From: Puniceicoccaceae bacterium
GTDB lineage: Bacteria; Verrucomicrobiota; Verrucomicrobiia; Opitutales; Coraliomargaritaceae
Assembly (NCBI GenBank): GCA_002729725.1
Contig: PBYS01000054.1
Span: forward strand, 62,001 to 126,000
DNA length: 64,000 nucleotides
Reading direction: 5' to 3'
Shown here: one piece after another, positions 44,640-45,403 of the stretch
Numbering within the stretch: position 1 is the first letter of the stretch
Layout: each line of letters starts with the position of its first letter
Notes under the pieces: model-generated
Told to the model about the DNA's origin: nothing
The model's input: the letters and a program-made list of their open reading frames with translations, nothing else
Databases searched by the model: none
Made by a program: the position numbers and the translations under genes

Positions 44640-44716
44640 GGGGGCTTAGCTCAGTTGGTTAGAGCGCATCCTTGACATGGATGAGGTCGCAGATTCGAAT
44701 TCTGTAGCTCCCACCA
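44640..44716 (+). tRNA. tRNA-Val (GAC)
   Basis: Cloverleaf: acceptor GGGGGCT pairs with AGCTCCC, D arm GCTCAGTTGGTTAGAGC, anticodon stem CATCC/GGATG with loop TTGACAT (anticodon GAC), T arm AGATTCGAATTCT, CCA encoded at 44714-44716. A 22-bp inverted repeat begins inside the CCA. Confidence 0.93.
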
Positions 44717-44774
44717 TGCTTCGCTCTTCGAGCTACGCATGGCGCAGCCAAAGTAGCTCGAAGAGCGAAGCATG
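44715..44774. repeat. Perfect 22-bp inverted repeat abutting tRNA-Val
   Basis: Bases 44715-44736 and 44753-44774 are exact inverted copies (outer CATGCTTCGC, inner TTCGAGCTAC) with a 16-base loop. Each arm contains a smaller hairpin with GCGTAG/CGAAGC flanks, a family that recurs at 44780, 45129, 45186 and 45221 with different but matched stems. It may also act as the tRNA terminator, although no T-run follows. Confidence 0.8.
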
Positions 44775-44865
44775 CCCTTGCGTAGTCCGAAGGACGAAGC
44801 AGGGCGCGACTTAAGGATCAAAAAGCAATTCATCCCCCACTAAAAAAAGTCCCCATCCCCCAAAG

Positions 44866-45108
44866 GTGCACTACGTTTACCTCATACGCTCCGACTCGCA
44901 TCCTAAGCAATCCTATGTAGGTTACAGCACCGACCTCAGAAAGCGCCTGCACTACCACAACCAAGGCGACAGCCCACACACGGCGAAGTATAAGCCGTGG
45001 AGCCTAGCATTTTACGCAGCCTTCCCCACAAAGACCAAGGCGCTAGAATTCGAAACTTACTTAAAAACGCACTCAGGCAAAGCATTCATCGCCAAAAGAC
45101 TCGTCTAA
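44866..45108 (+). CDS. Small GIY-YIG nuclease-domain protein
   Basis: An 80-residue protein almost entirely made of a GIY-YIG domain. It has YVYLIRSD, SYVGYSTDLRKRLHYHNQG with the catalytic Arg, and PWSLAFYAAFPTKTKALEFE with the Glu that binds metal. The start is GTG 44866. Short stand-alone members of this family (YhbQ-like) are common; their substrates are mostly unknown. The gene and its upstream 100 bases are duplicated at 45208-45400, where the copy is broken. Confidence 0.75.
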   Translation: MHYVYLIRSDSHPKQSYVGYSTDLRKRLHYHNQGDSPHTAKYKPWSLAFYAAFPTKTKALEFETYLKTHSGKAFIAKRLV

Positions 45109-45128
45109 CAAAAAAAACATAGGTTCGG

Positions 45129-45304
45129 GCTTCACTCTTCGAGCTACGCATGGCGCATTTAGAATCCACAATGCGACTGTGTCCTGCGTAGCCTTTAGGC
45201 GAAGCGGGAAGCATGCCCTTGCGTAGTCCGAAGGACGAAGCAGGGCGCGACTTAAGGATCAAGAAGCAATTCATCCCCCACTAAAAAAAGTCCCTCCCCC
45301 AAAG
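45129..45304. repeat. Second copy of the hairpin array and GIY-YIG upstream region
   Basis: Bases 45208-45304 repeat 44767-44865 nearly exactly (one A/G change and a 3-base deletion). Ahead of it stand two further hairpins of the same family, at 45129-45149 (inverted orientation) and 45186-45205. Confidence 0.75.
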
Positions 45305-45403
45305 GTGCACTACGTTTACCTCATACGCTCCGACTCGCATCCTAAGCAATCCTACCTAGGTTAGCACAACTAAAGCGACAGCCCATATACAGTGAAATTT
45401 TGA
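45305..45403 (+). pseudogene. Broken copy of the GIY-YIG gene
   Basis: GTG 45305 opens MHYVYLIRSDSHPKQSY, identical to the intact copy, then stops at 45362-45364. The remainder is shortened, with only GCGACAGCCCA and a few further bases still alignable. This is a decayed duplicate of 44866-45108. Confidence 0.7.

What the first reader, a model, noticed from the sequence alone, without database searches (positions are those of the whole stretch)
44715..45403. Duplicated GIY-YIG element with covarying hairpins abutting tRNA-Val
Hairpins with constant GCGTAG and CGAAGC flanks have different stems that still pair (CTC/GAG, TCC/GGA, CCT/AGG). A GIY-YIG gene with its upstream region is duplicated and the second copy has decayed. 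The first inverted repeat begins within the tRNA CCA. A small nuclease tied to structured repeats resembles REP/RAYT or homing systems, but with a GIY-YIG enzyme.
Basis: partly seen in the sequence, partly recalled or inferred. Interest (0 to 1): 0.68.

Follow-up and report, generated by a model that had tools for sequence, protein, structure and literature searches.

The report
tRNA-tail hairpin cassette with GIY-YIG nuclease
A roughly 400-base DNA cassette, made of paired hairpins plus a gene for a tiny DNA-cutting enzyme, sits exactly at the 3' end of tRNA (and tmRNA) genes in many bacterial phyla, comes and goes or is swapped between close relatives, and looks like an undescribed kind of minimal mobile or homing element.

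Summary
The window holds tRNA-Val, a perfect 22-bp inverted repeat that starts inside the tRNA's CCA, a second hairpin with a different stem, an intact 80-aa SLX1-like GIY-YIG gene, and a decayed second copy. Of 80 relatives in public genomes (many phyla), 61 lie directly downstream of an intact tRNA (45) or tmRNA (16) on the same strand. About 11 more follow a 3'-end remnant or CCA-hairpin junction. None had a tRNA/tmRNA within 500 nt upstream on the other strand or downstream. The hairpin abuts the CCA; its outer stem pairs with it and covaries (116/120 pairs; shuffles 49). At the same tRNA-Val locus, six sister genomes are empty (terminator right after CCA), one carries the element, two carry remnants. 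At one Bradyrhizobium tRNA-Ala site two cassette types occur; hairpin and nuclease types agree in 27 of 27, and flanking homology resumes just after the nuclease stop codon. Selection is purifying (dN/dS 0.04-0.11); no plasmid or phage record matched. Best reading: a tRNA-anchored homing-type cassette. Cleavage and mobility themselves were not shown.

The parts
44640..44716 (+). tRNA-Val(gac), the anchor gene; its CCA is 44714-44716
   Evidence: ARAGORN, Rfam RF00005
44714..44742 (+). Hairpin 1 in its short form: CCA-TG-CTTCG-CTCTTCGAG-CTACG-CA-TGG; outer stem uses the tRNA's own CCA
   Evidence: Sequence; same core at CCA in 60 of 89 loci parsed
44715..44774 (.). Long perfect inverted repeat, arms 44715-44736 and 44753-44774 (hairpin 1 and its inverted copy)
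   Evidence: the repeat finder I1, DNA fold
44775..44804 (+). Hairpin 2: CCCT-T-GCGTAG-TCC-GAA-GGA-CGAAGC-AGGG, different inner stem, same internal loop
   Evidence: counterpart upstream of the ORF across phyla
44866..45108 (+). Intact SLX1-like GIY-YIG nuclease gene, GTG start, 80 aa
   Evidence: PF01541 4.8e-18; AlphaFold2 pLDDT 96.7; SLX1/HIGLE nearest structures
45129..45294 (+). Second copy of the hairpin region, disrupted by an extra segment that holds another hairpin (45186-45205, CCT/AGG)
   Evidence: Repeats D1 and D4; pattern hits
45305..45396 (+). Decayed, internally deleted remnant of the GIY-YIG gene
   Evidence: Repeats D2 and D3; sequence shared with G003 resumes at about 45395 (AAATTTTGACAAGC)

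Best explanation
It is a minimal, integrase-free cassette anchored to the 3' CCA of tRNA and tmRNA genes: CCA - hairpin 1 and its inverted copy - hairpin 2 - SLX1-like GIY-YIG gene - stop codon, about 0.35-0.45 kb. SHOWN: the precise left junction at CCA; the right junction within a few bases of the nuclease stop codon (Bradyrhizobium); presence/absence and cassette exchange at orthologous sites; occurrence behind many different tRNAs and tmRNA; covarying stems; hairpin and nuclease types found together; purifying selection with repeated decay. INFERRED: (1) the gene is expressed by read-through from the tRNA, because the element takes the place of the tRNA's terminator. (2) The nuclease is structure-specific and acts on the hairpins, or on the cruciform or branch at the base of a tRNA gene, which would place cuts at the CCA. 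(3) Repair of such a break from a copy that carries the element installs or replaces the cassette, i.e. homing or gene conversion. The tRNA stays functional because the inserted DNA begins after CCA and is removed as a 3' trailer, so the site is safe for the host.
For: 61 of 80 relatives directly follow an intact tRNA (45) or tmRNA (16) on the same strand, 0 in any other arrangement within 500 nt, 11 more after remnants or CCA-hairpin junctions. Architecture conserved across phyla and starting at CCA. Outer stem with CCA covaries, 116/120 vs shuffle mean 49, max 67; inner triplets 178/240 vs mean 100, max 123. Orthologous tRNA-Val site: empty in 6 genomes with terminator directly after CCA, filled in G000, remnants in G003 and G007. 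Bradyrhizobium tRNA-Ala site: two cassette types with shared flanks, homology lost at CCA+8 and regained at +383 to +387 where the stop codon ends at +380; 27/27 agreement of hairpin and nuclease type. At least 25 changes of tRNA species on the protein tree. dN/dS 0.04-0.11. SLX1-like fold. Precedent: SegB, a tRNA-associated GIY-YIG homing nuclease (PMC13096335).
Against: No cleavage, transposition or homing was observed. No target-site duplication or right-end signal was found. How an occupied site escapes cutting is unexplained. Long persistence at the same tRNA in Bradyrhizobium, Rhizobium and Caulobacter, with strong purifying selection, would also fit a host function. Draft genomes and MAGs make some single loci uncertain; the protein tree has only about 80 columns.
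Confidence: 0.55

Rival explanations
1. A host-serving site-specific single-strand nuclease with cognate repeats (Ssn-like): the hairpins are ssDNA recognition sites and the enzyme tunes DNA uptake or recombination. The tRNA position mainly provides expression.
For: GNA-loop hairpins next to the gene and 27/27 hairpin-nuclease matching fit an enzyme-substrate pair; dN/dS 0.04-0.11. The Ssn family itself is recalled from memory; its paper was not held.
Against: Hairpins are few per genome (11 copies of the 21-mer), not hundreds; cassette exchange, empty sites and frequent decay are unexpected for a fixed host function.
Confidence: 0.2
2. An RNA-level device: the hairpins are part of the tRNA/tmRNA 3' trailer and control processing of the transcript and translation of the nuclease, which acts on RNA or on the trailer itself.
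For: The sense strand carries tandem GNA hairpins and alternative pairings right after the CCA; always co-oriented with the tRNA.
Against: GIY-YIG/SLX1 relatives act on DNA (general knowledge); hairpin-only and non-tRNA copies exist.
Confidence: 0.1
3. A guard of the tRNA 3' end: the cassette blocks or destroys incoming integrative elements that use the same attachment site.
For: It occupies the classical attachment site; in L188 and L195 only a tRNA-Ala 3' part precedes it, as if an island had entered.
Against: Those same loci suggest islands still enter; no other support was found.
Confidence: 0.07
4. REP/RAYT element: the hairpins are GTAG-REPs moved by a Y1 transposase and the GIY-YIG gene is a passenger.
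For: Bottom strand reads GTAG-stem-loop; 17 Y1_Tnp hits in the genome; Opitutus terrae is rich in GTAG repeats (PMC3733652); one dispersed hairpin lies about 0.7 kb from a Y1 gene.
Against: Only 1 of 17 Y1_Tnp hits has the hairpin nearby; tRNA/tmRNA anchoring and hairpin-nuclease matching.
Confidence: 0.05
5. Chance neighbourhood: hairpins are ordinary tRNA terminators and the GIY-YIG gene happens to lie nearby.
For: Hairpins after tRNAs are normally terminators.
Against: 61 of 80 same-strand placements and none in other arrangements; these hairpins lack the T-run and stand where sister genomes have the real terminator.
Confidence: 0.01

Closest known systems
SegB and other free-standing GIY-YIG homing endonucleases of T-even phages (PMC13096335)
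   Same: GIY-YIG nuclease whose gene is associated with tRNA genes, cuts in tRNA genes and drives recombination there
   Different: Ours is chromosomal, 80 aa, SLX1-like, fixed exactly at the tRNA/tmRNA CCA, preceded by covarying hairpins, with two viral contigs and no phage records among its relatives
Ssn, site-specific single-strand GIY-YIG nucleases of Neisseria and others (from memory; paper not held)
   Same: Small GIY-YIG enzyme with cognate palindromic repeats
   Different: No tRNA/tmRNA anchoring that I know of; repeats there reported in hundreds of copies, here about a dozen; membership could not be tested
REP/BIME elements with RAYT transposases (PMC3733652)
   Same: GTAG-tagged hairpins, inverted pairs, one enzyme gene flanked by its hairpins
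   Different: Enzyme is GIY-YIG, not Y1/HUH; low copy; anchored at tRNA 3' ends
Integrative islands and prophages at tRNA/tmRNA 3' ends
   Same: Same chromosomal landing place, tRNA kept functional
   Different: No integrase, no long att repeat in this type, about 0.4 kb
SLX1 / HIGLE structure-specific nucleases
   Same: Nearest solved structures and sequence neighbours
   Different: No C-terminal SLX1 domain or SLX4 partner; bacterial, encoded in a cassette

Membership tests
GIY-YIG nuclease superfamily | Match to the GIY-YIG domain and fold | tested here: met
   PF01541 4.8e-18; AF2 model matches SLX1 and UPF0213
GIY-YIG nuclease superfamily | Conserved Tyr-Tyr-Arg-Glu catalytic set | tested here: met
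   Y5, Y17, R27 and E63 invariant in 39 sequences; assignment of roles is by analogy
Homing endonuclease genes (SegB type) | Gene lies in or beside its target (tRNA) locus | tested here: met
   61/80 directly after tRNA or tmRNA
Homing endonuclease genes (SegB type) | Presence/absence polymorphism at the orthologous site | tested here: met
   tRNA-Val locus; cassette exchange at tRNA-Ala
Homing endonuclease genes (SegB type) | Cuts the empty allele and spreads by repair | not testable with these tools
   Needs enzyme and crosses
REP/RAYT | Y1/HUH transposase flanked by the repeats | tested here: not met
   1 of 17 Y1_Tnp hits has the hairpin within 1.5 kb
REP/RAYT | High copy number, dispersed in intergenic DNA | tested here: not met
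   Loose pattern 48 vs control 59; 11 copies of the 21-mer, 8 in tRNA arrays
tRNA-integrating island | Integrase gene within the element | tested here: not met
   Cassette holds only the GIY-YIG ORF between CCA and the flank
Ssn family | Single-strand specific cleavage at a cognate repeat | not testable with these tools
   Paper not held; no enzyme assay
Known structured RNA family | Match to a curated Rfam model | tested here: not met
   Only the tRNA or tmRNA matches in the element region

The most novel reading that the evidence does not exclude
A categorically new class of minimal mobile element: an integrase-free, tRNA/tmRNA-CCA-anchored cassette whose SLX1-like nuclease recognises DNA structure (the tRNA-gene cruciform and its own GNA-loop hairpins) rather than sequence. 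This would let it colonise any tRNA in distant phyla, borrow the tRNA's transcription, and co-evolve with matched hairpins.
Probability: 0.35. Interest if true: 0.92.

Novelty: new variant of a known kind. Interest (0 to 1): 0.8.

Why it matters
tRNA and tmRNA 3' ends are the classic landing sites of bacterial islands, but those landings are credited to integrases. A pan-phylum family of roughly 0.4-kb cassettes that marks the same spot with only a nuclease and hairpins would be among the smallest autonomous mobile units known. It would link homing endonucleases, REP-type hairpins and SLX1 biology, and it supplies many naturally matched hairpin-nuclease pairs for specificity tests. It also gives a context to small GIY-YIG genes next to tRNAs in Rhizobium, Bradyrhizobium and Caulobacter.

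Tried and rejected
REP/RAYT origin: the genome's Y1_Tnp genes are not flanked by the hairpin. Phage or plasmid gene: no match in either record collection, 2 relatives in viral contigs. Known RNA: Rfam finds only the tRNA. Named family: NCBIfam, PHROGs and PADLOC give nothing for the window protein. Genome-wide loose hairpin pattern: not above its control. A strict CTACGNNYGG(N)CAGGCC pattern was too narrow to census the order. First parse of hairpin 2 chose wrong registers and was replaced by one selected on the outer stem only. Looking for tRNA alone missed the 16 tmRNA-linked loci. A count of Bradyrhizobium ORFs by regular expression was wrong for type 2 and was replaced by tblastn; the '~19/30 intact' in my notebook is superseded by 23/30. 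The Ssn paper could not be found or read.

Full report
OBSERVATION. The window lies at G000:C54:62001-126000. The fold of the first region is far more stable than shuffles (z = -7.9).

THE tRNA IS THE KEY. In the same genome, four of six non-UvrC GIY-YIG genes lie just downstream of a tRNA on the same strand: Val, Ser, Met, His. Reading the 3' flanks of the genome's tRNAs shows two kinds. Most are followed by a T-run terminator. A minority (Val-gac, Gly-tcc, Gly-ccc, Ala-ggc, Arg-cct, Leu-taa, one Met, Ser-tga, Ser-gga, His) are followed, directly at the CCA, by a hairpin, with or without a GIY-YIG gene. In 37 genomes of the order the same arrangement recurs behind Val, Ser, His, Met, Gly, Phe, Arg, Asp, Asn and Ala tRNAs, whereas none of the 11 YhbQ-like GIY-YIG genes has an upstream tRNA.

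ACROSS PHYLA. A search of one genome for each of 84,980 species found more than 500 relatives; the best 80 were kept. Of these, 45 directly follow a tRNA and 16 a tmRNA, always on the same strand, within 500 nt. None has a tRNA or tmRNA within 500 nt upstream on the other strand or downstream. Eleven more show a CCA-hairpin junction, most of them clear tRNA/tmRNA 3'-end remnants such as L195 and L202; 2 lacked upstream sequence. The architecture is constant: CCA-NN-CTTCG-stem-loop-CTACG-NN-TGG; a short GGC-NN-GCC-like segment; an inverted copy of the first hairpin; a second hairpin such as CCCGGCGTAG-CCC-GAA-GGG-CGAAGACGGG; then the ORF, typically 95-200 nt after the CCA.

COVARIATION. In 60 elements the two variable outer positions next to the CCA pair in 116 of 120 cases, against a mean of 49 and a maximum of 67 in 2,000 shuffles. 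In hairpins chosen on the outer stem alone, the inner three pairs match in 178 of 240 cases, against a mean of 100 and a maximum of 123 in 5,000 shuffles. Shuffles do not correct for relatedness, but the stems span many phyla and eight distinct outer dinucleotides. The internal loop is mostly GTA/GAA, its complement, or related forms, consistent with sheared G-A pairs; that point is chemistry from general knowledge, not tested here.

BOUNDARIES AND POLYMORPHISM. At the orthologous tRNA-Val locus, next to the same upstream gene, six genomes have CCA followed at once by a terminator, G000 has the full element, G003 and G007 have hairpin remnants with altered stems, and G002 and G004 have other sequence. 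The left junction is therefore the CCA, and the element stands where the terminator was. In 60 Bradyrhizobium genomes the tRNA-Ala(ggc) site was examined and 30 loci were read. Two cassette types occur at the same site. In L310, L313, L316 and L320 compared with L297, nucleotide homology stops at CCA+8 and resumes at +383 to +387 at about 84-93% identity, just after the nuclease stop codon, which ends at +380. All 19 CGC-type hairpins go with nuclease type 1 and all 8 GCC-type hairpins that have a gene go with type 2 (the two proteins are 53% identical). Of 30 loci, 23 nuclease genes are intact, 5 are broken and 2 sites are hairpin-only. This is cassette exchange plus decay. Upstream flank plus tRNA of G147 and G211 are 99% alike although the cassettes differ.

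MOVEMENT AND SELECTION. On a tree of 89 proteins the tRNA species changes at least 25 times among 52 labelled rows; resolution is limited by about 80 columns. In the alphaproteobacterial clade the same CGC hairpin sits behind Ala, Leu, Lys and Tyr tRNAs. dN/dS is 0.04-0.11 in pairs where dS is not saturated. No plasmid or phage record matches, and only two viral contigs have relatives, one of them after what looks like a tRNA-Ser 3' remnant.

THE ENZYME. The AlphaFold2 model is confident (pLDDT 96.7). Its nearest solved structures are the SLX1-type nucleases HIGLE and SLX1, with UPF0213 BH0048 nearest in sequence. SLX1 cuts branched DNA (general knowledge), so structure recognition is a reasonable inference.

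MECHANISM. I favour a homing-type cassette: read-through expression from the tRNA, structure-directed cutting at the CCA or hairpin, and repair from a filled copy. Junctions, exchange, polymorphism, linkage and covariation are shown; expression, cutting and copying are inferred. How the filled site escapes cutting is open; the hairpin next to the CCA may mask it.

KNOWN RELATIVES. SegB of T-even phages is a GIY-YIG homing nuclease tied to tRNA genes (PMC13096335) and is the closest functional analogue. GTAG-REPs with RAYTs (PMC3733652) are an analogy in repeat form only. Ssn of Neisseria is a lead from memory that could not be checked. No paper found in the library describes chromosomal GIY-YIG genes fixed at tRNA/tmRNA 3' ends; the library is incomplete, so this is weak evidence of novelty.

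VERDICT. Classed as a new variant of a known kind, with a real chance that it deserves a class of its own.

Noticed in passing
L039:689-1100 and L049:1393-1800: A different GIY-YIG clade sits 34-45 nt behind tRNA-Asn without the hairpin, and is flanked downstream by a 35-44 nt direct copy of the tRNA 3' half, like attachment repeats.
   Followed up: partly
L003:1237-2100, L075, L076, L078: A third GIY-YIG clade (LVYVEGPM type) sits behind tRNA-Ser; in L003 a 19-nt copy of the tRNA-Ser 3' end (18 of 19 identical) lies downstream of the gene.
   Followed up: partly
L003, L075, L076, L091, L111: Another repeat, GGGATGAGAAC..GTTCGACGTAAGGAGCGAAGCGACTGGAG, recurs downstream of several tRNAs and GIY-YIG genes.
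   Followed up: no
L188 and L195, upstream of 2501: Only the 3' part of tRNA-Ala precedes the cassette in two Rhizobium genomes, as if an island had integrated in the tRNA and pushed the cassette to its far end.
   Followed up: no
L117:830-2430 and L094:1480-1500: Hairpin arrays behind tRNA-Gly without a GIY-YIG gene; in L117 two hairpin pairs are separated by about 1.5 kb of other sequence.
   Followed up: no
L169, 2330-2420: Hairpin 1 is present in three tandem copies behind tmRNA in a Kiritimatiellales genome.
   Followed up: no
L034, L036, L120: A dispersed subfamily of the hairpin with the downstream motif CCCGGCAAGCCGCGCT and no tRNA; the L120 copy lies about 0.7 kb from a Y1 transposase gene, a possible REP-like offshoot.
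   Followed up: partly
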